A stretch of DNA of 64,000 bases from an uncultured Collinsella sp. Lineage in GTDB: Bacteria; Actinomycetota; Coriobacteriia; Coriobacteriales; Coriobacteriaceae. The first letter of the stretch is position 1. Each line of letters starts with the position of its first letter. The stretch lies in contig CAKUGT010000006.1 of assembly GCA_934654795.1 (NCBI GenBank), positions 1 to 64,000 on the forward strand, written 5' to 3'. Shown in pieces: positions 1 to 13,396 of the stretch. Under the pieces are notes generated by a model. The model was not told where the DNA came from and searched no databases. It was given only the letters and a program-made list of their open reading frames with translations. Both the position numbers and the translations under genes were made by a program.

Positions 1-3000
1 AGGTCACGCCGCCCGCCGTGCCGGTGACCTCGCGCAGCTCGTAGCTGTGCGTGCCGGGCGCGGTGTAGGTGACCGGGCTGAGCGCGACCGTTCCGTCGGC
101 GGCGTTCCTGCCCGTCGCCGCGACGCTCTCGCTGCCGTCGGCGGCAATCTCGATCAGCTGGAACTCGAACTCGCCCTCGGCCAGGTCGCGGCCCTTGAGC
201 TTCTTGCTCACCTTGATCTGGTCGGTGACGGAGCTCGGCGTCGGGTCCACGCCGTAGGTGTTGGTGAACTCGAATGCGCCCTTGCCCTGGGGCGTGCCCT
301 CGGCGGGCAGGACCTCCGCGGCGATCGTGCCCGCGGCGGTATTCTCGACGACCTTGACCGTGAAGGTCCTAGACGTCACCGCGTCGTTGACCACGCCGTC
401 GACCGAGCCGGACTCGCTCACCCGGTAGGCGAACGTCTTGGAGCGCAGGCCGTCGCCGTCGATCGCGGCATCGCCGAGGTCACTCGGCCGCTTGAACGTG
501 ACGTGGCCCAGCTCGACGTTGCCGGCGGCGTCGTTGGTCGCCTCGGTCACCGTCTTGCCGGAGGCGTCGACCGGTGCGGGCGCGCCGTCCAGCGGTGCAA
601 TCTTGAAGGTGTACTTGCCCGCGATGTCAGCCTGCGTCATGCCGAGTCCGGCCTGGCCGAGCGCCAGCGTCTTGGTGCCCGCGAGGTCGACCGTCGCCTC
701 GTTGGTGCCGTAGCCGTTCACGAACGACAGTGTGCCGTCGCAGCCCTTGGGATAGGTCACGGCAACATCCAGCCCACCCTTGCCGTTATCGGTCACCTTG
801 ACGGTGATGTCGAAGCTCGAGGCGGTCGCCGTCACGCCGGCGGGCAGCGCCGCCGTGTCCTCGGAAACGGTATAGGGGATGGTCCAGGAGCCGTCGGCGG
901 CCCTGGTGGCGGTACCGTCCGCCACCATCTGCTCGAGCGAGCCGATGGTGTAGGCGATGGGCGAGAACGTGAGCTCCGCGGCCTCGCCGTCGTCGGAGGC
1001 CCGGTTGGATGCGGTCGCGACCGCGTTGCCGTGCGCATCGCGGACGGAGAACGAGAACTCGCCCGCCGCCGCGGCGCGACCCGTCAGCGTCTTGGTGGCG
1101 CTGATGGCCACACCGCCCTCGCCCCCGAGCGTGCCGGTGGCATCGTAGGAGTTCTGGAACGCGACCGTCACGGGCGCGGGCGGCACCGTGGCGTCGTCTG
1201 CCGTCGAGACCTCGCTGTGGGCGACCTCGACGCCGTCCCTGGCGACCGTGGTCGTGACCGTGAGCCTGCCCGTCGCGGCATCGTAGGCGGGCGCGATGGT
1301 CACCGTGCGCGGCTCGGTGTCGTTGGCGTAGCCGTAGCCGCCGGTCTTGGTCTCGGTGACGGTGAAGCTGTAGGTCTTGCCCGCGTCGGCGTCGGTGAAC
1401 TTCACGTCGCCCTTTGCGGCGCCGCCGATGAGGTCGATGAAGTCGGCCCGTCCGTCACCGGCCGCGGTCACCGTGTAGGCGTCCTTGCCGGTCTCAAGGC
1501 CGAGCCTGGCGGCCGTCTCGTCGTCGGCGGTCACGGTGAAGGCGAACTGTCCTGCCTCCATCGCGCGGCCGGTGAGCGTCTTGGACAGGCGCACGCCCGC
1601 GCGGGCCGAGTAGTCCAGCCCGGTCGTGTAGGTGTTGACGAAGTCGCCGCCGCTCGCCTGCGCGATCGCGGGCGTCGAGGCCGTGAGGTTGCCGGAGCCG
1701 TCGTCGGTCACGGTCACCGTCATCGTGGCGGCATGGCCGTCGTAGGCCACGCCAGCGATGGCCGTGCCGTCAGCGGGCCTGACCTCGCGCACCGTGTAGG
1801 TGAAGGTCTTGGCGCGCACGCGCTTGCCGCCGACCTCCGCGAACCCGGCGTCCTTGATGTCGTCGAGCGTATAGCGGATGGGGCCGAAGTCGAAGGCGAC
1901 CTTTTCGCCCGCCTTGGTCCCGGCGGCCGTCACGCTGACGGTCTTGGAGCCGTCAACGGAGCCCTCGGGCATGGGCGCGCTGTCCTCGCCCGTGAGCGTG
2001 AACTGGAAGCTGTCGCCCTCCGCCCAGTCGCGGCCCTTGAGCGTCTTGGTGAAGAGCCCCGCGGTGGAGACGTCCCTGCCCTCGGTGGCCGTACCGTACG
2101 TGTTGGTGAACGCGACGGTCGCGCCGGCCTCGGTCACGGTGCCCTCGGCCTTGGAGCCGTCGGCCCCGTCAACCGTAGTCGTGTAGCCCTCGGCGGCGTC
2201 CTCGGTCACGGTGTAGTTTGCGCCCACGGGCAGGCCGGTGATGGTCTTCTCCCCGCCGTGCTTGAGCTTGAAGGTCGCCTTGCCGTCCGCGAACTCCACG
2301 GCGTCCCCACCCTTGCCGAAGGTGCCGGAGACGAGCTCGCCGTCCCCGTCGGCCAGCGCGACCGTGAAGCCGAACTCGCGCTGGCTGTCGCCGCCGACGA
2401 CCGTCTTCTTGACGGTGAGACTGCCGTTCTTAGCGGTGTTGGTAAAGACCGCCGCCTCGACCGTACGCTCGGCAGCATTACCGGCATCGTCGGTCAGCTG
2501 CGCAATCTTAGTCTTGGCAGACAGCTTGCCGGCGCCGTCGTCAGTCACCGTGACGGTGGCATGATAGGTGGCCTTCGAGAAGGTGAGCGCCGTCTCGTCA
2601 CCCGCCTGCTCGGCAATCATATAGGTATAGGTGCCGGGCTTGGCGTACTCGATGGTTCCGAAGTTGCCAACCTGGGCGTCCCTGTTCAGCGTGATCGTCG
2701 ACACGCCATCCTTGGCGCCCTTGGGCATGGGTGCCTCGCCCTCGGCGGTCAGCGTCATGGTAAAGGCATCCGACGTCGTCCAGTTGCGTCCGGAGATCTT
2801 CTTTTGGACCTTAAAGGCGTTCTCCACCTTCGTGGACTCCACGCTATAGATGTTGGTGAATCCGACCTGCGTCGCCTGTCCGACGGTACCCGCCTGGGTG
2901 TTCGTCTTGTCGGCAACCGCAAAGCCGTCCTCGCTCGTCATGAGGCTGCCCTTGGAGTCGAGCTCCTGCACCTCGTAGTGCGCGCCCACGGGCACGGTAA

Positions 3001-6000
3001 CCGTCACGGAGCCACCGGCCTTAAGCGCGATGGTGTCACCGCTCTTGATCTGTCCGCTTACATAGGTGCCGTTGGTTCCGCTGGGACGACCGGTGTACGC
3101 AAAGGTGCCGGTCAGAGGCGTTGTGCCATCGGCCTGGTAGAGCAGCACCTTAAAGGTGAATTCCTTGTTGGGTGCGGTGATGCCTTCGGCGGCCGTGACC
3201 GTCTTGCTCAGCGTCAGGCGGCCGTCAGAGACCTCATCGGTGGTGGTGTTGGTCTTGACGGCAGGGTTGTTGCCGACCTTCACCGACGCCTGGTTGGAGA
3301 TGTCATCCGAAGCGCCGCCGCTCTTAAATGCATCCTCGGTCACACGGACCTTAAACTGGACCGTGCCCTCCTCGCCGGCGGGAACATCCGTCAGCGTCCA
3401 GGTGAGGTTGCCGTCTTTGTCCTTGGAGCCAGCGTTCGCATGGTCGCCCGCGAACTCCACGAACTCGGTCCCCGCGGGAACGGTATCGGTAATCGTCACC
3501 GTTGCCGGCGCGTTCTCGGTGTTCTTGTAGCCGATGGTATAGGTGAGCTCATCGCCCAGCGCCACACCCGACCCCGTCGAATCCTGAGCATCGCTCTCGG
3601 ACTTCTTGGGCACGTAGTTGGTCGTGGTGCCGGTATAGCTCTTTTTGCCGACCGTAACGGTGGCGGTGTTCTTGATGGTGCCGACAGCGCCCTGGACATC
3701 CTTCACAGCGTCCTCGGTAATCTTGACGCGCACGCGCACCGAACCGTGGCTGCCCGCAGGCTGCTTGCCCAGGCTCCACGTGAGCAACTGGCCGTCCGCG
3801 GCGCCCTTATCGGCGTTCTCGCCCTCAAAGGCCTCGAACACAACGCCGGCAGGCAGCTTGTCGGTCACGGTCAAGTTGGCAGTGCCACTATCATCGGCCT
3901 CGTTGTTAACCCAGTTGATGGTGTAGACATAGGAGTCACCCACGGAGAGCAGCTGCCCGTCGATATCCACGCTGGGCTCCGCGACCGTGCCGATCGTCTT
4001 GACCTTATCGCGTGTGTTGTGGAAGACGATCTTGCCGTCCTCGGTACCATCGCGATAGGTCACCTTGGACGTAAGGTTACCGTTGTTGTCGTCGGTCACC
4101 TCGAGCAGCACACGGCACGTCGCGGACGTATCCACGGGACGAACGCCATCTGGCAGGTTGGCCAAGCGCTCCTTTGCCACCAGGTTAAAGCTGTAGGTAG
4201 TGGTGTGGTCGGCATTGTGGCGCTTGTCGGCAAAGCCATTTGCCACTTCGTCGGCAAGATTGACCGTCTTCTCTTCAGGTGTGCTGGTATCGCCGCCGAG
4301 CTTAAAGGTGACCGTACCAAAGTTGACCGTTGCGGTATCGCTCTCGCTCGCCTGGGTCGTGCCCTCATCAATCGGTTTAAGCGAGCCGTCGGCTTTCTCC
4401 GCATACAGGTCAAACGCATACTGACCCGCCTTGATCTTGTCGCCGGAGTCCATTACCTTCTCGGCAGTAAGACCGTCGAATGTTCCGGACGCGGCATAGC
4501 TGTTGGTGAAGGATACCCGAGCCTCGACAGGACCGTCCACGGAGTTCTTTTCATCCTTAGAAAGCTCAGTCCCATCGGCAGCAAAGTGCTTGACGGTAGT
4601 CACAGTATAGAGCGAGCCCGAGCCATCGGTGCGCTTGTTAACCGCAATCGCAACCGTCCAATAGGTGGAATCGTATTTATAGCCGTCCTTGTTGCCCTTA
4701 TTCTCGACAACCTTGTAGGTGAACGTCTTATCCACGTCGTTCGTTGTAAAGGTCAGGCCGCCCAAAATACCGGTATGAGATGCACCGTCGGCCTGGGGCT
4801 CATCGTTGGTAACGGCAAGCTCGCCCTTATCCTTGTCCGCGCGCAGCAGTGCCTTGAGCTTTGCGGTTGAGGCATCGCCTACGCCCGTCACCGTAAAGCC
4901 AAACATGCCGGCATGCAGATCCTTGCCCTTGAGCGTCTTGACGATCTCCAGGCCGCCCTGGAGCTCGTAGCTCGTCGAAGTTTGGTAGCTGTTGGTGAAG
5001 ACGAAGCCGCTCGCACCGGTCGTACCATCGGGGCGCGCGACGAGCTTACCGCCCTCATCGGTTACGGTAACCGTCACGGTATAGACGTGCTGGTCATACT
5101 TCCACTCGCCAAGGCCGCTGTTCGGAGCCACCTCGTTAATGGCGAATGTATACGTGCCCGGCTTGTTGAAGGTAAGCGTCGAGAAGTCAATCTTATCGTG
5201 CGCGCCGTCGGCAAGCTTGTCCCTCGTTTGCCTCTGCTCGGCATAGCCGTTGTCCGCACTCATCGAAGATCCGGTGATGAGCTTGCCGTCGATGGCAGCC
5301 CGGGTAACATCGTCAGCCGCGGTCATGGTAAAGGTGAACTTGTCCTCAGCATCGCGGCCGGCAACCACCTTGGTCACGGACGGAGTGTAGGTCGCCGCAT
5401 CGGTGACCGTATAGGTGTTCTTGAATTTGACCGTCGCGGCACCGGTGGACGTCGCATCCGACGGATAGATCCACTGGCCCTCGAGCTCGTCCTTGCCATC
5501 AACCGTCTTGCTTACCGATGTCGTGACCTTGAGCGTGCCGTCGCCGTTGTCCGCCACGACAGCCTTAACCGTATGGACCGTCTTGTCGTACGTATAGCCC
5601 GTCGCCTTGTCGTCAATCTCGGCCACGGTATAGGTAAACGTCTTGCCGGCGTCATTCTGAGTGAAGGTCAGCCCGCCCTCGGGTACCAAGCTCACGGTCT
5701 TGGGGGTATTGGCCTCGACGTTTGCGGTCTCAAAGACCTTGCCGTCCATGGTAATACCGACCTTCTTGGCAGATGTCTCGTCGGCAGGCTTGACGATATA
5801 GCGGAACGTGCTCTTGGGCGAGCCGAACACCGTCGCGTCCTTGGGATACGTCAGCGTCTTCTCAATCTGCAGGCCGCCAGCGGTGCCATAGTCGAGGCTT
5901 GCCGTATAACGGTTCACAAACGAGACGGAAGGCGTCATGGTTCCGGCATTGCTGGCATCATACTGCTGCACGTATGTGTTCTTGTCTTCCTTGAGCTCGG

Positions 6001-9000
6001 CAATTTTATCGTCCGTCAACGCGCTCGCATCGGCACCATCGCCCAGCAGCGCCGTCACACCTGCGCCCTTGAGCACGGTCGTCACGGTATAGAGCTTGGC
6101 GGGGTCGATGTCGCGCGCAAGGACTTTAACGAGCACGATGGCGTCGCCGGTGTAGCCGGTGTCATAGGTGTAGCCGGCAGCCGCAGGCTGGTTCTCGCGG
6201 ATGCGATAGGCAAACGTATGTCCCAGATCCCGCTCCGTGAGCTCGCGGGCAAAGAGCTTCTCTGCCCCGCGCGTGCCTACCACGGTGCCGGACACACCGG
6301 CGCCCGCCGCCTTATTGGAAAGGTTGGCCTCGGCGCCATCGACCGTGGTCTGGATGCCGTTGTACCAAAGGCCCGTCACGCTAAAGGTAAACTGGCCGTC
6401 AGTCGAGGTACGGCCCATGAGGGTCTTGCTCACCGTCACGCCGCCAAAGGCGCCCGTCGCATGGTATGCGTTGGTAAAGGCAGCCTTGTCGGTTATGGCC
6501 TTGTCCGCGTCGGAGGCTCCGGTGTTGGCATAGGTCACGCTCGCGTGCAGCTTGCCCGTGTGGCCGCCCGACCCGTCAAGATCGGTCACCACAACGGTCG
6601 CGCGGGCGGTGTGCTTGTCCATAGACATGCCCGCCTGACCGTCCTGCGCGGTGTCTTCGGTGATATTGAAGCTAAAGGTGCCCGCGCGCTTGAACGTCAC
6701 GGCCGGAGCGGCTTCGGTGCCAAAGGCAAACGATGCCACGCGTCCCGACTCGGGCGCGGTGACGGTAGCCTGGCTGGCGTTAATAGCGACAGCCCCGTCC
6801 GCCACTGCCTGCGCAGTGGTCTTGTCCAGACCAGTCACGCTGGCGTCGTCCGTAGCGGCGGCAAGGTTAAAGGTGTAGCTCTCGCCCAGGCTCCAGTCGC
6901 GACCGCTCACGGTCTTTTGGCCCTGCAGGGTCGCACTCGTGGGCTCCACACTATATTTATTGGTAAAGGAAGGCGTGACGTTCGTTTTCAGCTGCTCTAC
7001 CGAGCCGTTTGCCGCGGTCTTGTAGTACTCGATCGAGGTTTCGATGCCGGCACCCTTTTTGGCGTTGCGCACCACAGCGTAATAGACCGACCCGTCGTAG
7101 GTCATGCCCACAACATTGCCGGAGTCCTCAGTGAGCTTGTACACGTAGGCGCGTCCCGCATCCGGCTTGGCGGTATAGGAGATCGCCGGCCACTCCACCG
7201 TACCGTCTTTGGCGTTGTTGCCCACGGTCGCGGTGTTGTTCTTGGCGCCCTGAGGCATGGGGGCCGTCACGCTCGTGTCGACCGTATCGGGACTAAACAC
7301 TGCACTAGCATCCGCATATCCGCCAACGCCCTCGAGCTTAAAGCTAAAGGCGTTCTGGGCAAGCGGGAACGTTCCGGCGTTGTCGGTCAGTTTCTTTTGG
7401 GCATGGATGATGATGTCCTTCTCATGCTCATCGTAGCGATTGGTGAAGGTAGCTACCTTATCGGTAACCTCCTTCTTAGTCTCGGCGCCCACGTCATCAC
7501 GCACCTGCATCACCTTCACGCTCGTAACGACCAGAGCGCCGGCACCGTTATCCACCACCACAACCTCAGCGGTATAGGAGGCGGCAGAATAGCTTATGCC
7601 GTCCGCCCCGGCATCGGAACCGGGGATAACCTCCGAGATGGTATAGGTGTACGTGCCAGGCTTGGTATAGGTGATGTCGCCAAACGTTGCCTTCTTATAG
7701 GTGATGTCGCCAACCGTTTCCGTCCGGGTGAACTCGACCGTCGACACCTTGCTCTTGGCACCGTAGGGCATGGGGACGCCGTCCTCGGCTGTAAGCTGCG
7801 CGGTAAAGGTATCGCCATCGGCCCATTCGCGACCCTCGAGCACCTTCTTGGCGCTCAGGCCACTCTGGGCATCGAGCGTTACCGAGCTGGCGCTGTAGTT
7901 GTTGGTGAACTCGAGCTTGTTGCTCGCGGGAATGTTTCCGCCCACGAGCGCCGCGATCGTGCCCTCGATGGTGTTGCCGGTTCCGGACTGCTCCTCGCCG
8001 CCGGCCCTGCGGCTCACGAGCCTAAAGCCAGCCGGAAGCACCGACTCATCGGCAGAGCCGGTCACGGTGTTAACGATGCTCGCCAGCACGTTGCCGTTGG
8101 ACTCCTCGCCCTTGGTGGTGAGCTCGCTCACGCTATACTTGTCATCCTTCTTAAGGTCGTATACGCGGATGGTCTCGCCGGCCTTAATGGAATGGGTGCC
8201 GCCGTTCTTGAGTGTAAAGGAGTTGCCCACGGCCTCGCCGTTCGCATCGAACACATGCGCCTCGTAGCCCTTCTGGGACTCCGGCAGGGTGAACTTAAAT
8301 GTAAAGGTCAGGTCTTCGCCCTTCGCATCCTTGGTAGGCGCGGTGAGGCCATCGTCTGCCGTCACGGTCTTGGTCACTTGCAGACGCGCCACGCGACGGT
8401 CGGTATACTGCACGGCCGTCGCCGTGGTAAAGAGATGATTGAGCTGGAGCGTGCCCAGATCGGTGCCATTGGTGACATCATCATCTTGATAGAGGGCCAT
8501 GCGGTTGATACCCGTGTCGGCAAAGATCGTCGCCAGCTGGCCGTCGCGGACGCCCTTGTCCTCGACATAACGCAGAACGGTCTTGGTGCCTTGCGTCTTC
8601 TCCTCGTAGCGCATGTGCATGAGGCCGTCCGCAAGAGTTGGCGTCACTCCCTTGGCAGTGCTCGTCTGGGCCCACGCCAGGTTACCCTTGTCATCTGTAT
8701 TAGTCGCGCTCTGCAGCTTGCCCTTAATGTGCGTAAGCGTGTTATCGATCGAGTCGGGAGAGCCAAACTGTGCCAGCGAGGCAATGAGCGAGCCCGGGCC
8801 GCTCATGCTGCGCACGCCGTCGTTCTTCTCGCCGGCATCTACGTACACACCCGAATCGTCCACGATCACCTTGGTGATGGTGGAATTTATCTCGTAGCCA
8901 TCCGGGCTCATCGATTCGCGCAGGTAGTACGTACCCTTGATAAGGGGCTTATGCTTTGTCGAATCGAGCGGGAAGCATGCGGCGCCCTCAATGTCATACG

Positions 9001-11236
9001 GATAGGTCATGCCGTTTGCCTGCACGGTGTCATACGGCTCGGCACCCGATTTAATGGCATAGGTTTTAGGGCTATCGCCGGTAACGTCTTTGGCTTGGTA
9101 CAGCTCAAACGTCGCACTGTTCACGGGCTTGCCCAAGTCATCGACCTTCTGCACAAACAGACGGTTCTGAACGTTCGTAAGGTGGATCACGGTTGAGAAC
9201 TGCCTGTTTATCGACTGGTATTGAACCATGGAGGTGTTCTCCGTGGTTGCCTCTGCCAGAGACGACGCCGTGGTGTGATACGCCGCCACGGTATATTCGG
9301 ACTGAGACTTATCCTGTAACATGGCGGCGTACTTCTCGATATCGCCGGGCAGCGACCTGACCGTCACCTCGTAATCGCCCTTGGTGTTGACGGCAAAGAC
9401 ACTCGTGTCGGCCGATTGGGCAGCCTCGACGGCACCGGCAATGCCGTGTTTGGAGCACAGTTTGTAGCCATCGAGCGGATTGCCCGTGACCGCCGTCCAT
9501 GCGTCTTCGCTTGTGTGGTCCTCGCCCGCACCGGTGAGCTTGAGCACGACGGCAAAGGTCGTACCCGAGCTAATGGCGTGGCCCTTATTGTCTACCGTCT
9601 CTTTGGACAGGGAGATGGTCTCCTTGGCGGCCAGATAGCCACCGTTGAGCCACATACGACTACCCGTCCATTGTTTGCCGTCGGCTGTGGTGACCGTTGT
9701 TTCCGGGGCAACAACCACGCCGCCCGTGCCACTCGCCGCGGCCTGCTTGTACTGCAGATGCAACTCGCCTGGCGTTGCGGTGGTCGACGAGGTCAGACTC
9801 GAGCGATATCCCTCGGGCAGGCCTTCCTCTTTGAGTACAAAGTAGTCGTGCCCATCGGCATGCTGGTTATCAAACGAGAGCACGGAACCGTCCGACTTCA
9901 TCCGAAGCACCAGCTGGCCATTGGCGCCCGTCGTGCCCTGAGCGATGGCCTCACCCTGCTCATTCCAGTCGGCATCCGACTGATACAAAGCGAAGGTTGC
10001 GCCCTGGACAGCCTCGCCGTTCTGGTTGACCTTCTCGACCTCGGACGACGGCAGGGTGGTGAGGTTGAACTTGAGTGACATGTTCGATGCGCCCGCGCCG
10101 CGCTCCAGATAAAAGAAGCTCAGCGTGTGCTTGGTGCTGTCACGGAAGGTGCTGCCGGAGAAGTTGGTGGTATCTGCACCGGCGGCGTCGAACTTTGCCT
10201 TGATGGTGGTTTTTTCGATTTCCTGCTCGTCTCCATCCGCACCGTCAATATGACCGACTTTCACTTCGCCGGTAGCAAAGTTGATATCAAGCGTTGCCTT
10301 CTCGTGAATACCACCCAGATCGCCCACGAGTACGTCGTCGATGTAGACCCAGACGTCATCATCGCCCGAAAACTTAAAGATCATATCCTCGTTTTTGGTG
10401 GTCTTACCACCGTTAGGCTGGACAAACTCCGTAGTCATGGACATGCCAAAGTGATGGTTGAGATCCGTGCTTCCATCAACGATCTTTTTAGGGGAGAGGT
10501 TGTTGCCGTTCTCATCAAAAACCTTGCTTGCAGAGTCAAAGGGGAAGAACTGACCCAGATTGGTTTCACTACTCGTATCGCCCTTATATACGCCCGCTTT
10601 ATCGTAGACGTCAAAGGAATTGGTCGTGGAGTTATACACAGCGTAGTTGCCGTTAGAGCCGTACGAGTCGTAGACGTAGTAACCATCCTTGAGCTGGAAG
10701 AGGCCCTGCACATTGTTGTAAACGTCCTTGCCGCTCTGCTGGCCATTTTCCTGGCTGGCGCTGTTAAAGAGGTAATCGAGCGACTCATCGGTGTAGTTAA
10801 CGCCCTGGTAGGTGCCATTTTTGATCTCCGGATAGCCCTTTACCAGTGTGTTCTTCACAAATGGAAGGCGCCCAAAGCCACCGGTGGTGCTCTTGCCCGT
10901 CCACTTGTTAATGCCCGTGCCGGCGCCACCATTGAACTTGAGCTGATGGTCTTTATTGATACCGGTGTTGTTATTCTTGTTGTCGTTGTTTATGTTCTTC
11001 GAGCTATCGTTATCGCCATCGACAACCCAGTAGTCGAACAGGTTAACCGTGGTGCCGGTAGGATTCACCGTCTGCACGGTATGGTCGCTCACGGCAGCCG
11101 ACGCACTCGTCGCGCCAAACATGAGCGCGCACGCCGCCAGCGGGACGGTCAAAACCCTCAGAGCACGCTTGGCAGTATTGGTTTTTGTGCCAAAAGGCTC
11201 CAGTATTTCTCGAACTCTCGCACACAAGCGATTCAT
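1..11236 (-). CDS. Giant modular surface adhesin (isopeptide/Cna-B repeats), 3' end beyond window
   Basis: At least 3745 codons are open on the minus strand; the C-terminus and any sortase motif lie left of base 1. The ATG at 11234-11236 follows a GGAGGG ribosome binding site. Residues 1-47 form a signal peptide ending ATSASA. Around residues 100-390 is a fibro-slime/PA14-like head with the motif DDDVWVYIDDVLVGDLGG (near residue 290). SpaA/Cna-B modules follow near 396-490 and 686-782. About fourteen FctA/Spy0128-type pilin isopeptide modules (V-KTL-GRDW...F-F; KPGTYTY-I-E; Y-ATVTVTD) run from about 1116 to the edge, interrupted near 2409-2670 by two DUF11 modules (VGDSYVYTINW). Known members form intramolecular Lys-Asn isopeptide bonds and act as cell-wall stalks. 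Attachment to host ligands or other bacteria is inferred. It is very likely one intact gene: the frame stays open for 11 kb. Confidence 0.93.
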   Translation of the reverse strand, partial: MNRLCARVREILEPFGTKTNTAKRALRVLTVPLAACALMFGATSASAAVSDHTVQTVNPTGTTVNLFDYWVVDGDNDSSKNINNDNKNNNTGINKDHQLKFNGGAGTGINKWTGKSTTGGFGRLPFVKNTLVKGYPEIKNGTYQGVNYTDESLDYLFNSASQENGQQSGKDVYNNVQGLFQLKDGYYVYDSYGSNGNYAVYNSTTNSFDVYDKAGVYKGDTSSETNLGQFFPFDSASKVFDENGNNLSPKKIVDGSTDLNHHFGMSMTTEFVQPNGGKTTKNEDMIFKFSGDDDVWVYIDDVLVGDLGGIHEKATLDINFATGEVKVGHIDGADGDEQEIEKTTIKAKFDAAGADTTNFSGSTFRDSTKHTLSFFYLERGAGASNMSLKFNLTTLPSSEVEKVNQNGEAVQGATFALYQSDADWNEQGEAIAQGTTGANGQLVLRMKSDGSVLSFDNQHADGHDYFVLKEEGLPEGYRSSLTSSTTATPGELHLQYKQAAASGTGGVVVAPETTVTTADGKQWTGSRMWLNGGYLAAKETISLSKETVDNKGHAISSGTTFAVVLKLTGAGEDHTSEDAWTAVTGNPLDGYKLCSKHGIAGAVEAAQSADTSVFAVNTKGDYEVTVRSLPGDIEKYAAMLQDKSQSEYTVAAYHTTASSLAEATTENTSMVQYQSINRQFSTVIHLTNVQNRLFVQKVDDLGKPVNSATFELYQAKDVTGDSPKTYAIKSGAEPYDTVQANGMTYPYDIEGAACFPLDSTKHKPLIKGTYYLRESMSPDGYEINSTITKVIVDDSGVYVDAGEKNDGVRSMSGPGSLIASLAQFGSPDSIDNTLTHIKGKLQSATNTDDKGNLAWAQTSTAKGVTPTLADGLMHMRYEEKTQGTKTVLRYVEDKGVRDGQLATIFADTGINRMALYQDDDVTNGTDLGTLQLNHLFTTATAVQYTDRRVARLQVTKTVTADDGLTAPTKDAKGEDLTFTFKFTLPESQKGYEAHVFDANGEAVGNSFTLKNGGTHSIKAGETIRVYDLKKDDKYSVSELTTKGEESNGNVLASIVNTVTGSADESVLPAGFRLVSRRAGGEEQSGTGNTIEGTIAALVGGNIPASNKLEFTNNYSASSVTLDAQSGLSAKKVLEGREWADGDTFTAQLTAEDGVPMPYGAKSKVSTVEFTRTETVGDITYKKATFGDITYTKPGTYTYTISEVIPGSDAGADGISYSAASYTAEVVVVDNGAGALVVTSVKVMQVRDDVGAETKKEVTDKVATFTNRYDEHEKDIIIHAQKKLTDNAGTFPLAQNAFSFKLEGVGGYADASAVFSPDTVDTSVTAPMPQGAKNNTATVGNNAKDGTVEWPAISYTAKPDAGRAYVYKLTEDSGNVVGMTYDGSVYYAVVRNAKKGAGIETSIEYYKTAANGSVEQLKTNVTPSFTNKYSVEPTSATLQGQKTVSGRDWSLGESYTFNLAAATDDASVTGLDKTTAQAVADGAVAINASQATVTAPESGRVASFAFGTEAAPAVTFKRAGTFSFNITEDTAQDGQAGMSMDKHTARATVVVTDLDGSGGHTGKLHASVTYANTGASDADKAITDKAAFTNAYHATGAFGGVTVSKTLMGRTSTDGQFTFSVTGLWYNGIQTTVDGAEANLSNKAAGAGVSGTVVGTRGAEKLFARELTERDLGHTFAYRIRENQPAAAGYTYDTGYTGDAIVLVKVLARDIDPAKLYTVTTVLKGAGVTALLGDGADASALTDDKIAELKEDKNTYVQQYDASNAGTMTPSVSFVNRYTASLDYGTAGGLQIEKTLTYPKDATVFGSPKSTFRYIVKPADETSAKKVGITMDGKVFETANVEANTPKTVSLVPEGGLTFTQNDAGKTFTYTVAEIDDKATGYTYDKTVHTVKAVVADNGDGTLKVTTSVSKTVDGKDELEGQWIYPSDATSTGAATVKFKNTYTVTDAATYTPSVTKVVAGRDAEDKFTFTMTAADDVTRAAIDGKLITGSSMSADNGYAEQRQTRDKLADGAHDKIDFSTLTFNKPGTYTFAINEVAPNSGLGEWKYDQHVYTVTVTVTDEGGKLVARPDGTTGASGFVFTNSYQTSTSYELQGGLEIVKTLKGKDLHAGMFGFTVTGVGDASTAKLKALLRADKDKGELAVTNDEPQADGASHTGILGGLTFTTNDVDKTFTYKVVENKGNKDGYKYDSTYWTVAIAVNKRTDGSGSLYTVTTVKHFAADGTELSKDEKNSVDGPVEARVSFTNSYAASGTFDGLTAEKVMDSGDKIKAGQYAFDLYAEKADGSLKPIDEGTTQASESDTATVNFGTVTFKLGGDTSTPEEKTVNLADEVANGFADKRHNADHTTTYSFNLVAKERLANLPDGVRPVDTSATCRVLLEVTDDNNGNLTSKVTYRDGTEDGKIVFHNTRDKVKTIGTVAEPSVDIDGQLLSVGDSYVYTINWVNNEADDSGTANLTVTDKLPAGVVFEAFEGENADKGAADGQLLTWSLGKQPAGSHGSVRVRVKITEDAVKDVQGAVGTIKNTATVTVGKKSYTGTTTNYVPKKSESDAQDSTGSGVALGDELTYTIGYKNTENAPATVTITDTVPAGTEFVEFAGDHANAGSKDKDGNLTWTLTDVPAGEEGTVQFKVRVTEDAFKSGGASDDISNQASVKVGNNPAVKTNTTTDEVSDGRLTLSKTVTAAEGITAPNKEFTFKVLLYQADGTTPLTGTFAYTGRPSGTNGTYVSGQIKSGDTIALKAGGSVTVTVPVGAHYEVQELDSKGSLMTSEDGFAVADKTNTQAGTVGQATQVGFTNIYSVESTKVENAFKVQKKISGRNWTTSDAFTMTLTAEGEAPMPKGAKDGVSTITLNRDAQVGNFGTIEYAKPGTYTYMIAEQAGDETALTFSKATYHATVTVTDDGAGKLSAKTKIAQLTDDAGNAAERTVEAAVFTNTAKNGSLTVKKTVVGGDSQREFGFTVALADGDGELVSGTFGKGGDAVEFADGKATFKLKHGGEKTITGLPVGANYTVTEDAAEGYTTTVDGADGSKAEGTVTEAGATVAFTNTYGTATEGRDVSTAGLFTKTLKGRDWAEGDSFQFTLTGEDSAPMPEGSVDGSKTVSVTAAGTKAGEKVAFDFGPIRYTLDDIKDAGFAEVGGKRVRAKTFTYTVREVRPADGTAIAGVAYDGHAATMTVTVTDDGSGNLTASTPAIAQASGGDFVNTYTTGLDYSARAGVRLSKTLTGRAMEAGQFAFTVTADDETAARLGLETGKDAYTVTAAGDGRADFIDLIGGAAKGDVKFTDADAGKTYSFTVTETKTGGYGYANDTEPRTVTIAPAYDAATGRLTVTTTVARDGVEVAHSEVSTADDATVPPAPVTVAFQNSYDATGTLGGEGGVAISATKTLTGRAAAAGEFSFSVRDAHGNAVATASNRASDDGEAAELTFSPIAYTIGSLEQMVADGTATRAADGSWTIPYTVSEDTAALPAGVTATASSFDITVKVTDNGKGGLDVAVTYPKGCDGTLSFVNGYGTNEATVDLAGTKTLALGQAGLGMTQADIAGKYTFKIAPLDGAPAPVDASGKTVTEATNDAAGNVELGHVTFKRPSDLGDAAIDGDGLRSKTFAYRVSESGSVDGVVNDAVTSRTFTVKVVENTAAGTIAAEVLPAEGTPQGKGAFEFTNTYGVDPTPSSVTDQIKVSKKLKGRDLAEGEFEFQLIEIAADGSESVAATGRNAADGTVALSPVTYTAPGTHSYELREVTGTAGGVT

Positions 11237-11309
11237 GAAGGCCCTCCCCAATCCATGAGGACGGCAAGCAGTGGCTCGCTATATGTGTGTCGTCGTCCCC
11301 ATCGATGCA

Positions 11310-11339
11310 AATATACGCCCCCCCCGCGCAGAAACGCAA
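11310..11339 (-). promoter_or_regulatory. Predicted adhesin promoter with G8 homopolymer in the spacer
   Basis: On the minus strand a -35 TTGCGT (11334-11339) and a -10 TATATT (11310-11315) are separated by 18 bp. The spacer contains eight consecutive G (C8 on the plus strand, 11318-11325). The leader to the ATG is about 70 nt. Losing one G would give the optimal 17-bp spacing, the architecture of slipped-strand phase-variable promoters. The promoter is predicted from sequence only. Confidence 0.6.
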
Positions 11340-11480
11340 GGCGGGTCATCGCTATATACTTAAAAGTGTAGCAATTTGAGTGACCCGAAATTCCCCATCA
11401 GGTTGCAACTCAGGCCCAAAATCGAACCATTCGCGCCACACAAGGTAGCTAAAACAGCCCGTCCCAAAATGACTGGTCGA

Positions 11481-11547
11481 AGTTGCGGTGGAATAGTTCT
11501 TGTTTGGCTGCTCAGGCCGCAAAAACAGGAACTATTCCACCGCAACT
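11481..11547. repeat. 67-bp near-perfect hairpin, possible terminator or repeat
   Basis: A perfect 19-bp inverted repeat (AGTTGCGGTGGAATAGTTC at 11481-11499 and its complement at 11529-11547) flanks a loop that pairs a little further (TGTTT with AAACA). It lies 17 bp beyond the stop of the TadA fusion gene, so it could act as its terminator. The long arms resemble a dispersed palindromic repeat more than a simple terminator. Confidence 0.6.
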
Positions 11548-11563
11548 TATCGAGGGATGCGTT

Positions 11564-13345
11564 TTAGATGCGGGCGAAGTCGTAGGCTTGGGCGGCGGCT
11601 TCGCCGGCGCAGATGAGATTGACTGTGGCTTCCCGCGGATCGAGCGCCTGGTCGAGGGGCATAGGCTTTCGGCAGACGGGAAGCACCAAGTCGATACCCT
11701 GCTCGTACACCGCATCCAGGTTGTCGGCACGACCGCCCACGACAGCGACCACCGGCTTGCCATATCGCTTGGCGCGGCGGGCCACACCCACCGGCGCTTT
11801 GCCGGCGGCGGATTGCTCGTCCATATTGCCCTCGCCCGTTATGACCAGGTCGACATCGCGCACGCGCTCGTCAAACCCAATCAGATCGAGCACCGTCTCC
11901 ACGCCCGAACGCAGCCCCGCGCCGAGCGCCAGCAGCGCGGCACCCAGGCCGCCGGCGGCACCGGCACCGGGCACGCCGAGCACCGAGCCAAATGTCCGTG
12001 CGCCTTCGGACACGCGCAACAACCCTTGAGCCCGCGCCTCGGCAATCGCCGCATCGAGCAGGCGGCCGTAGCCGACCATCCAACTGTCGTACTTGCGCAG
12101 CACCTCGGCGTCACCCGTCGGCAGGCCCTTCTGCCCGCCGAACACCGTCAGCGCCCCACGGCGCCCCACAAGCGGATTCTCGACATCGGAAAGCACGACG
12201 ATGCGCACGCCATCCAACGCCCGCACCGCCGGCACCAGATCAACACCGGCCACTTGCTCAAGGCCCGCGAGCCCCGGCGCGATATCGCAGCCACGGTCGT
12301 CGACAAGACGCGCGCCCAACGCCTGTAGCATGCCAGCGCCGCCGTCGTTGGTGGCACTGCCGCCCAGTCCTATATATAGAGTCTTCGTCCCCGCGCGAAC
12401 CGCGCGGAGTATGAGCTCGCCCACGCCATAGGTTGTAGCAGCCAGCGCCGACGACTCCGTGCAAGGCGAGTACCCGATGCCCGCGGCTTCGGCCATCTCG
12501 ATGACCGCGGACTCGCGCTCGACATCAACCAGCATCCGGGCAGGCACACGCTTGCCCAAGGGACCTGCCACCTCGCAGGTCACAAGCTCGCCACCGCAGG
12601 CGGCAACGGCATCGAGCGTTCCCTCACCACCATCTGCCAGCGGCAATGTGCGCACCTCGGCATCGGGCCAAACGCGTCGTACGCCTTCGGCAACCGCCGC
12701 CTCTGCCTGCGCACTCGAAACACTACCCTTAAAGGAGTCGATCGCCAGCAGCACACGGCGGGGCCGGCGGCACGCAGGACCAAAGTTGAGCGCCTCAACG
12801 GCAATATCTTTGGCACACGCGAACGCCTCGGCATGAGCGGCATGTGCCTCAAGATCGACCCCACAACCGCAGCCAGTACCATCGGTGCCACGCAGCCCAC
12901 TAAAATAGCTGCTCAACACCTCACGACACTCGTCTGCCAGCACGCCGGCGGTCACATTAAACCGATGATTCAGGCGCGAGTCGGCATTCAAATCGTATAG
13001 GGATCCCAACGCGCCCGCCTTGGCGTCGCTCGCGCCATACACGCAGCGCCCCACGCGCGCGTTGACCATAAGGCCCGCGCACATGCAGCAGGGCTCGAGC
13101 GTCACATAGACGGTGCAGTCGGAAAGGCGCCAACGGCCGAGCGTCCGAGCGGCGGCACACAACGCCGCAAACTCAGCATGCGCCGAAGGGTCTTGATCGA
13201 GCTCGCGACGATTGTGCGTCCGCGCGACGATCTCGCCCGCGCACACCACCACGGCACCAATGGGCACCTCGCCCACCGCCGCGGCAGCGCGCGCCTCAGC
13301 CAGCGCCTCGCGCATGAACTTCTCGTCGATTTCGGTGATCGTCAT
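11564..13345 (-). CDS. tadA: Fusion of tRNA adenosine deaminase (TadA) and glycerate kinase
   Basis: This single 593-residue frame joins two enzymes. Residues 1-150 are a TadA deaminase, with the zinc/proton-shuttle motif HAE at 56-58 and PCCMC at 85-89 (C86 and C89 as zinc ligands). TadA converts A34 to inosine in tRNA-Arg(ACG). A Cys/His/Ala-rich linker of about 45 residues leads to residues 197-593, a GarK/GlxK-type glycerate kinase (LLAIDSFKGS, ADGGEGTLDA, GLGGSATNDGGAG, TGEGNMDEQS), which phosphorylates D-glycerate. The chosen ATG (MTITEID) has GGGAAGG upstream; a start 17 codons earlier is possible but overlaps the tRNA promoter area. Both halves look complete, so both activities are expected. 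No stop or frameshift is visible at the junction. Confidence 0.88.
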   Translation of the reverse strand: MTITEIDEKFMREALAEARAAAAVGEVPIGAVVVCAGEIVARTHNRRELDQDPSAHAEFAALCAAARTLGRWRLSDCTVYVTLEPCCMCAGLMVNARVGRCVYGASDAKAGALGSLYDLNADSRLNHRFNVTAGVLADECREVLSSYFSGLRGTDGTGCGCGVDLEAHAAHAEAFACAKDIAVEALNFGPACRRPRRVLLAIDSFKGSVSSAQAEAAVAEGVRRVWPDAEVRTLPLADGGEGTLDAVAACGGELVTCEVAGPLGKRVPARMLVDVERESAVIEMAEAAGIGYSPCTESSALAATTYGVGELILRAVRAGTKTLYIGLGGSATNDGGAGMLQALGARLVDDRGCDIAPGLAGLEQVAGVDLVPAVRALDGVRIVVLSDVENPLVGRRGALTVFGGQKGLPTGDAEVLRKYDSWMVGYGRLLDAAIAEARAQGLLRVSEGARTFGSVLGVPGAGAAGGLGAALLALGAGLRSGVETVLDLIGFDERVRDVDLVITGEGNMDEQSAAGKAPVGVARRAKRYGKPVVAVVGGRADNLDAVYEQGIDLVLPVCRKPMPLDQALDPREATVNLICAGEAAAQAYDFARI

Positions 13346-13396
13346 CGTTCGCCTTCCCTGTTGCAAATTCAAAACGATGCTATCATTACGACTCAC

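What the first reader, a model, noticed from the sequence alone, without database searches (positions are those of the whole stretch)
11310..11339. Phase-variation candidate: G8 tract between -35 and -10 of the giant adhesin gene
The only good promoter upstream of the 11-kb adhesin has eight G in an 18-bp spacer. One-base slippage gives 17 or 19 bp, which would switch expression. This is the layout of known slipped-strand phase-variable surface-protein promoters (for example Neisseria porA, Bordetella fim), and the gene is a surface protein.
Basis: partly seen in the sequence, partly recalled or inferred. Interest (0 to 1): 0.75.

Follow-up and report, generated by a model that had tools for sequence, protein, structure and literature searches.

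The report
Slippery G-tract in adhesin gene promoter
A run of eight G bases lies in the likely promoter of a giant surface-adhesin gene of a Collinsella gut bacterium, and because the same run has a different length in close relatives, it probably acts as a random dial or switch for making the protein.

Summary
C8 on + (G8 on -) at 11318-11325 is the only G/C run of 7 or more in 64 kb. It lies between TTGCGT and TATATT (18-nt spacer), 81 nt before the ATG of a predicted sortase-anchored giant adhesin in the Collinsella aerofaciens group. Comparison supports a phase-variable tract: 2 of 43 held genus genomes carry the same promoter with G10 instead of G8, while 17 nt before and 18 nt after the tract are identical in all three. 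In the adhesin family, 7 of 19 genus loci have G8 or longer at the 5' end (0.02 expected), in four different sequence settings. In one sister group the G9 allele reads from a leader into the adhesin; G7, G8 and G10 alleles stop early. Other genus tracts also vary (brxA G9/G10; sugar transferase G8-G11). Inferred, not shown: the promoter itself (-35 only 3 of 6, no start mapped), any effect on expression, and variation within one strain. In the window a coding switch is ruled out by a stop between tract and gene; in relative G009 that frame is open. New member of a known kind.

The parts
11318..11325 (-). G8 tract (C8 on +), proposed slipped-strand tract
   Evidence: G10 at the same site in G039 and G009
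11334..11339 (-). candidate -35 hexamer TTGCGT (3 of 6)
   Evidence: invariant in the three aligned loci
11310..11315 (-). candidate -10 hexamer TATATT (5 of 6)
   Evidence: invariant in the three aligned loci
11300..11342 (-). block of 17 nt, tract, 18 nt, invariant in three loci except for tract length
11278..11283 (-). second possible -10 site, 34 nt below the tract: TATAGC here, TATAAT in G039 and G009 (rival promoter)
11243..11249 (-). likely ribosome-binding site GGGGAGG, 6 nt before the ATG (by eye)
   Evidence: invariant in the alignment
1..11236 (-). giant adhesin gene (ATG 11236; runs off the window): Fibro_Slime, SpaA, FctA in 14 stretches, DUF7601
   Evidence: complete 4006-aa orthologue with MPDTG near its C-terminus in G039
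11480..11548 (.). 26-nt inverted repeat (96%) between the upstream gene and the adhesin promoter
11564..13396 (-). upstream ORF, same strand, with deaminase and glycerate kinase domains

Best explanation
The G8 tract is a hypermutable slipped-strand (contingency) tract in the promoter of a sortase-anchored giant adhesin. Slippage in replication adds or removes G residues, which changes the -35/-10 spacing (18 nt at G8, 20 nt at G10) and so raises or lowers transcription at random within a population. Shown: position, tract-length difference between related genomes with invariant near flanks, recurrence of G-tracts at the 5' ends of related adhesin genes, and length variation at two other G-tract loci in the genus. 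Inferred: that TTGCGT/TATATT is the working promoter, that spacing is the causal variable, that lengths near G7-G8 are the more active ones, and that cells within one population differ.
For: Tract and hexamers verified; only long G/C run in 64 kb. 2 of 43 genus genomes share the promoter; tract G10 versus G8, the 17 nt before and 18 nt after it identical. G>=8 on the sense strand at the adhesin 5' end in 7 of 19 loci from 18 of 43 genus genomes, G7 in 3 more, neither in 9; 0.02 expected from the density of such runs in three genomes. In 80 loci from named records, 6 have G>=8 in the 5' window against 5 runs in 522 kb elsewhere, and 4 of those 5 lie at the 5' end of the ORF that holds the adhesin match. 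Sister group: six distinct alleles, G7 three times, G8, G9, G10; only the G9 leader reads into the adhesin. Other loci vary too: brxA G9 in 4 and G10 in 3 of 7, the tract being the only indel in about 321 bp; sugar transferase G8-G11 in 8 of 17 loci read. In the window a stop (TAG) lies between the tract and the ATG in the adhesin frame, so a frame switch cannot work there. Best promoter-like pair in the window's upstream region.
Against: The -35 matches only 3 of 6 and the strict scan finds no promoter. Shuffled sequence gives an equally good pair in 2.6% of trials. In the two G10 relatives this pair ranks only 4th and 8th, and they carry a TATAAT 34 nt below the tract that could be the real -10. 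In G009 the adhesin frame is open right through the tract. G8 followed by TANNNT is not commoner in the genus than its reversed control (107 versus 144 overlapping matches, my sums), so promoter-type tracts are no genus-wide rule. Only three alleles of this promoter were available, from different genomes, none from one population.
Confidence: 0.6

Rival explanations
1. The tract is phase-variable but not as a -35/-10 spacer: the working -10 is the downstream TATAAT-like element, or a regulator binds above the tract, and length changes alter the distance to an upstream site, as modelled for Bordetella fim and reported for Neisseria nadA.
For: TATAAT lies 34 nt below the tract in G039 and G009; the candidate -35 is weak; the G028 adhesin has its tract in another position relative to a -10-like element. 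nadA: start of abstract seen; fim: passages.
Against: The window has TATAGC there, while TATATT is invariant; the longest invariant block holds the tract and TATATT.
Confidence: 0.2
2. The tract acts in a translated leader, by frame or by translational coupling, as in the sister adhesins.
For: The sister group has a leader switch. An ATG 24 nt above the tract opens a 38- or 39-codon frame whose TGA overlaps the adhesin ATG in the window and in G009; in G009 the adhesin frame is open through the tract.
Against: In the window and G039 the adhesin frame is closed below the tract (TAG, TGA), so no tract length can join them; in G039 the leader frame ends elsewhere; in G009 no ATG, GTG or TTG stands above the tract in the adhesin frame. 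By eye no Shine-Dalgarno precedes the leader ATG.
Confidence: 0.09
3. Neutral homopolymer: the length differs between species but does nothing.
For: Homopolymers are mutable anywhere (established knowledge); no expression data.
Against: Runs of G>=8 are few (10, 16 and 12 in three genomes) yet recur at adhesin 5' ends far above expectation.
Confidence: 0.09
4. Assembly or sequencing error in tract length.
For: Homopolymers are error-prone; raw reads were not available.
Against: Two different genomes both read G10, and two other loci show one-base differences across several genomes.
Confidence: 0.02

Closest known systems
Neisseria meningitidis porA promoter (poly-G between -35 and -10)
   Same: G-tract between -35 and -10 of a surface-protein gene; 11G, 10G and 9G give high, middle and low expression (PMC3639595, passages)
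   Different: Gram-negative; expression measured there, not here; here the promoter is only predicted and the gene is a predicted sortase-type giant adhesin
Bifidobacterium breve sortase-pilus G-tract switch (bbr_0113, bbr_1889)
   Same: G-tract replication slippage at the 5' end of sortase-dependent pilin genes of a gut actinobacterium (PMC9187656: abstract and two Results sections read)
   Different: There the tract joins two reading frames; here it is outside the coding sequence in the window. The Collinsella sister adhesins (L090-L093) resemble the coding type
Bordetella fim2/fim3/fimX C-stretch promoters
   Same: Homopolymer overlapping a surface-fibre promoter; length goes with transcript level (PMC1891110, passages)
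   Different: The model there is distance from an activator-binding region to the -10 box, not a -35/-10 spacer
Neisseria meningitidis nadA
   Same: Adhesin under phase-variable differential spacing of distal promoter elements (PMC2791445, title and start of abstract only)
   Different: Repressor NadR binds operators there; no regulator was looked for here

Membership tests
Promoter-spacer slipped-strand phase variation (porA type) | Homopolymer or short repeat lies between -35 and -10 of the promoter | tested here: inconclusive
   Sequence fits with an 18-nt spacer, best pair in the region, but -35 is 3/6, no transcription start is known, and the strict scan finds none
Promoter-spacer slipped-strand phase variation (porA type) | Tract length varies between isolates with constant flanks | tested here: met
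   G8, G10, G10 with 17 and 18 identical flanking nt; between species-level genomes, not within one strain
Promoter-spacer slipped-strand phase variation (porA type) | Length change alters expression reversibly | not testable with these tools
   no expression data
Promoter-spacer slipped-strand phase variation (porA type) | Controlled gene encodes a surface-exposed product | tested here: met
   by prediction: Fibro_Slime, SpaA, FctA domains; MPDTG, hydrophobic stretch and RRRR at the C-terminus of the G039 orthologue
Bifidobacterial pilus coding G-tract switch | Tract inside the coding sequence so that length sets the frame | tested here: not met
   In the window the tract is 81 nt above the ATG and a TAG closes the adhesin frame between them; likewise TGA in G039; in G009 the frame is open but has no start above the tract
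Bifidobacterial pilus coding G-tract switch | Controlled gene is a sortase-dependent pilin-type protein | tested here: met
   by domain prediction
Bordetella fim-type activator-spacing promoter | Activator-binding site above the tract with distance to the -10 set by the tract | not tested
   no regulator site was searched

The most novel reading that the evidence does not exclude
Human gut Collinsella carries a genus-wide set of G-tract contingency loci (giant adhesins, surface-polysaccharide enzymes, a BREX defence gene), and in its giant fibro-slime adhesins the switching tract has arisen repeatedly and in different places (promoter in one lineage, leader frame in another, codons after the signal peptide in a third), so the same surface protein family is put under random control by several independent routes.
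Probability: 0.55. Interest if true: 0.72.

Novelty: new member of a known kind. Interest (0 to 1): 0.56.

Why it matters
Collinsella aerofaciens is a common human gut commensal. A random dial on a 4000-residue adhesin would make cells of one strain differ in surface display and attachment, so phenotypes from single colonies could mislead. It would extend slipped-strand phase variation, best known from Gram-negative pathogens and shown in Bifidobacterium, to this genus, and it gives simple read-level tests in existing data.

Tried and rejected
Genus-wide promoter rule: G8 followed by TANNNT within 0-8 nt occurs in 34 of 43 genomes, but the reversed control is no rarer (107 versus 144 overlapping matches, my sums), so no enrichment. 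Viral contigs: 0 matches to the promoter pattern. Rfam: no family at 10900-11900. Frame switch in the window: rejected because a TAG lies between tract and ATG; not rejected for G009. Own genome: not held, so no own-strain alleles. Literature on Collinsella, judged by listings only: 'phase variation' 7 papers, 'slippage' 4, 'contingency loci' 0, Coriobacteri with 'homopolymeric' 8, a mixed search with 20 of 529 listed, and a pili/adhesin/sortase search with 12 of 610 listed; no listed title or abstract start concerns G-tract variation in Collinsella. Only this open-access library was searched. porA searches: (1 paper; 10 of 24 listed; 20 of 126 listed) led to the Bifidobacterium paper.

Counting notes: of 24 match rows I counted 19 loci; the others are further parts of the same genes (L084, L085, L086, L088) and one weak second hit in G016 (L087), left out. 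L088 was used to read the G033 tract. The run density behind the 0.02 comes from three genomes that themselves carry such adhesins, and the 400-bp span was chosen after seeing the data. Of 38 G>=8 runs, 30 became loci; 24 ORFs (the longest sense ORF nearby, sometimes 400-560 nt below the tract) were scanned with Pfam, two adhesin loci (L177, L181) were not, and four gave no ORF. At the sugar transferase 17 of 18 matches were read; in 2 the fixed-position reading found no run and may have missed it, since one or both matches lie near a contig end.

Full report
What is there. The minus strand carries G8 at 11325-11318, between TTGCGT (11339-11334) and TATATT (11315-11310), spacer 18 nt, 81 nt before the ATG at 11236. 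It is the only G/C run of 7 or more in 64 kb. The gene reads off the left end of the window. Its domains are Fibro_Slime (TIGR02148), SpaA, FctA in 14 stretches, and DUF7601. The G039 orthologue is 4006 aa and ends in MPDTG, a hydrophobic stretch and RRRR, which I read as a sortase signal.

Organism. The nearest held genome shares 23% of the window's sampled words. The best named match is Collinsella aerofaciens MCC370 (L089); its 18450-base contig has the length of the G009 contig that carries the same promoter. I place the window in the C. aerofaciens group.

Is the promoter real? With a recalled sigma-70 matrix the pair is the best in 369 bp of the window (8.05; next 4.16 sharing its -10, then 4.08) but ranks 4th and 8th in the two relatives, where the spacer is 20 nt. 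The strict scan finds no promoter, and 128 of 5000 shuffles give as good a pair around a G8. So sequence alone is only suggestive. Conservation adds weight: of 380 aligned columns 299 are invariant, and the 17 nt before and 18 nt after the tract are among them without a break.

Tract variation. Of 43 genus genomes, 2 carry this promoter, both with G10. The two extra G are the only gap within 60 nt on either side.

Could it be a coding switch? In the window and in G039 the adhesin frame is closed between tract and ATG (TAG, TGA), so no tract length can fuse a leader to the gene. In G009 one extra base opens that frame through the tract, though with no ATG, GTG or TTG above it. An ATG 24 nt above the tract gives a short frame whose TGA overlaps the adhesin ATG in the window and in G009 but not in G039. 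I see no Shine-Dalgarno before it. Translational coupling is thus unlikely but not excluded.

Recurrence. The adhesin N-terminus has relatives in 18 of 43 genus genomes. Of 19 loci, 7 have G>=8 near the start on the sense strand (G039, G009, G004, G041, G037, G028, G033), 3 have G7 (G018, G036, G007), and 9 have neither. With 10, 16 and 12 runs of G>=8 in three genomes, 0.02 are expected in 19 x 400 bp; even four independent groups give P about 8e-9. The 400-bp span was chosen after seeing the data. In 80 loci from named records, 6 have G>=8 in the 5' window, all six from records named Collinsella; 5 runs lie elsewhere in 522 kb. Four of those five (L096, L101, L118, L145; three Bifidobacterium, one Clostridiales MAG) lie at the 5' end of the ORF that holds the adhesin match; L099 does not. 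74 of the 80 loci have no such tract in the 5' window, so the feature is far from universal.

Different placements. In one sister group the tract is in a leader with its own start: of six distinct alleles, the G9 allele reads on into the adhesin (1490 aa open in the locus), while G7 (three), G8 and G10 stop after 20-27 residues. In G033 it follows the signal-like stretch in the adhesin frame; in L112 it is in the adhesin frame too; in G028 it lies outside that frame, near a -10-like TATAGT; in L100 it is undecided, since the frame is open through it.

Other loci. Pfam scans of 24 ORFs beside 30 of 38 runs in three genomes found two sugar transferases, two glycosyltransferases, an epimerase, a flippase, an O-antigen-ligase-like protein, BrxA and one adhesin of the sister group; others do not fit a surface theme (a PTS enzyme, MraW, ATPases, a GH31-like protein), and 8 of 24 had no Pfam family at E 1e-5. 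At brxA the tract is G9 in 4 and G10 in 3 of 7 genomes and is the only indel in about 321 bp with 0-6 mismatches. At the sugar transferase it is G8-G11 in 8 of 17 loci read, G5 in 7 (one of them at another site), and not read in 2. Adhesins, surface sugars and phage defence are the kinds of genes that known contingency loci control (established knowledge).

Mechanism. The most likely reading is slipped-strand variation of promoter spacing, as in porA, where 11G, 10G and 9G give high, middle and low expression (PMC3639595, passages). Spacing of 17-18 nt should be more active than 20 nt (established knowledge of sigma-70 promoters), so G8 is predicted more active than G10. Whether Collinsella follows this is not shown. 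The main rival is a different -10 or an upstream regulator, with the tract setting a longer distance: TATAAT stands 34 nt below the tract in both relatives, TATAGC in the window.

Comparison. The nearest relative by gene type is the B. breve sortase-pilus switch (PMC9187656, abstract and two sections), whose tract joins two reading frames; the window's tract cannot. The nearest by mechanism is porA. Bordetella fim fits less well (PMC1891110, passages). I found no description of G-tract phase variation in Collinsella in the searches named (listings only), which cover one open-access library.

Verdict. Ordinary in kind, new in place, and well supported as a variable tract; the promoter-spacer step is probable but not shown.

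Noticed in passing
L193 (G009) and L199-L205: G9/G10 tract just before the BrxA domain of a BREX-type defence gene; with G9 the frame opens 142 nt above the tract, with G10 only 15 nt above it in the two G10 loci read for this: candidate phase-variable phage defence.
   Followed up: partly
L172, L191, L206-L222: Sugar-transferase gene with a G8-G11 tract near its start in 8 of 17 loci read; six others have G5 followed by a different sequence at the site.
   Followed up: partly
L175, L182, L183, L185, L188: Other G>=8 tracts beside or some hundred nt above glycosyltransferase, epimerase, flippase and O-antigen-ligase-like genes: a possible phase-variable surface-polysaccharide set.
   Followed up: no
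L096, L101, L118, L145: Related adhesin ORFs of three Bifidobacterium species and a Clostridiales MAG carry G8-G11 at their 5' ends, so the association crosses phyla.
   Followed up: partly
L064 (G009 contig 23): The G009 orthologue of the adhesin stops early (2852 aa) after an apparent frame change; described only.
   Followed up: no
11444-11476: Short sequence with up to ten matches per genome in 20 of 98 related genomes, several as opposed pairs: a dispersed repeat of the genus.
   Followed up: no
11480-11548: 26-nt inverted repeat (96%) between the upstream gene and the adhesin; the terminator scan found nothing there.
   Followed up: no
11564-13396: One ORF holds both a deaminase domain and a glycerate kinase domain, an apparent fusion.
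   Followed up: no
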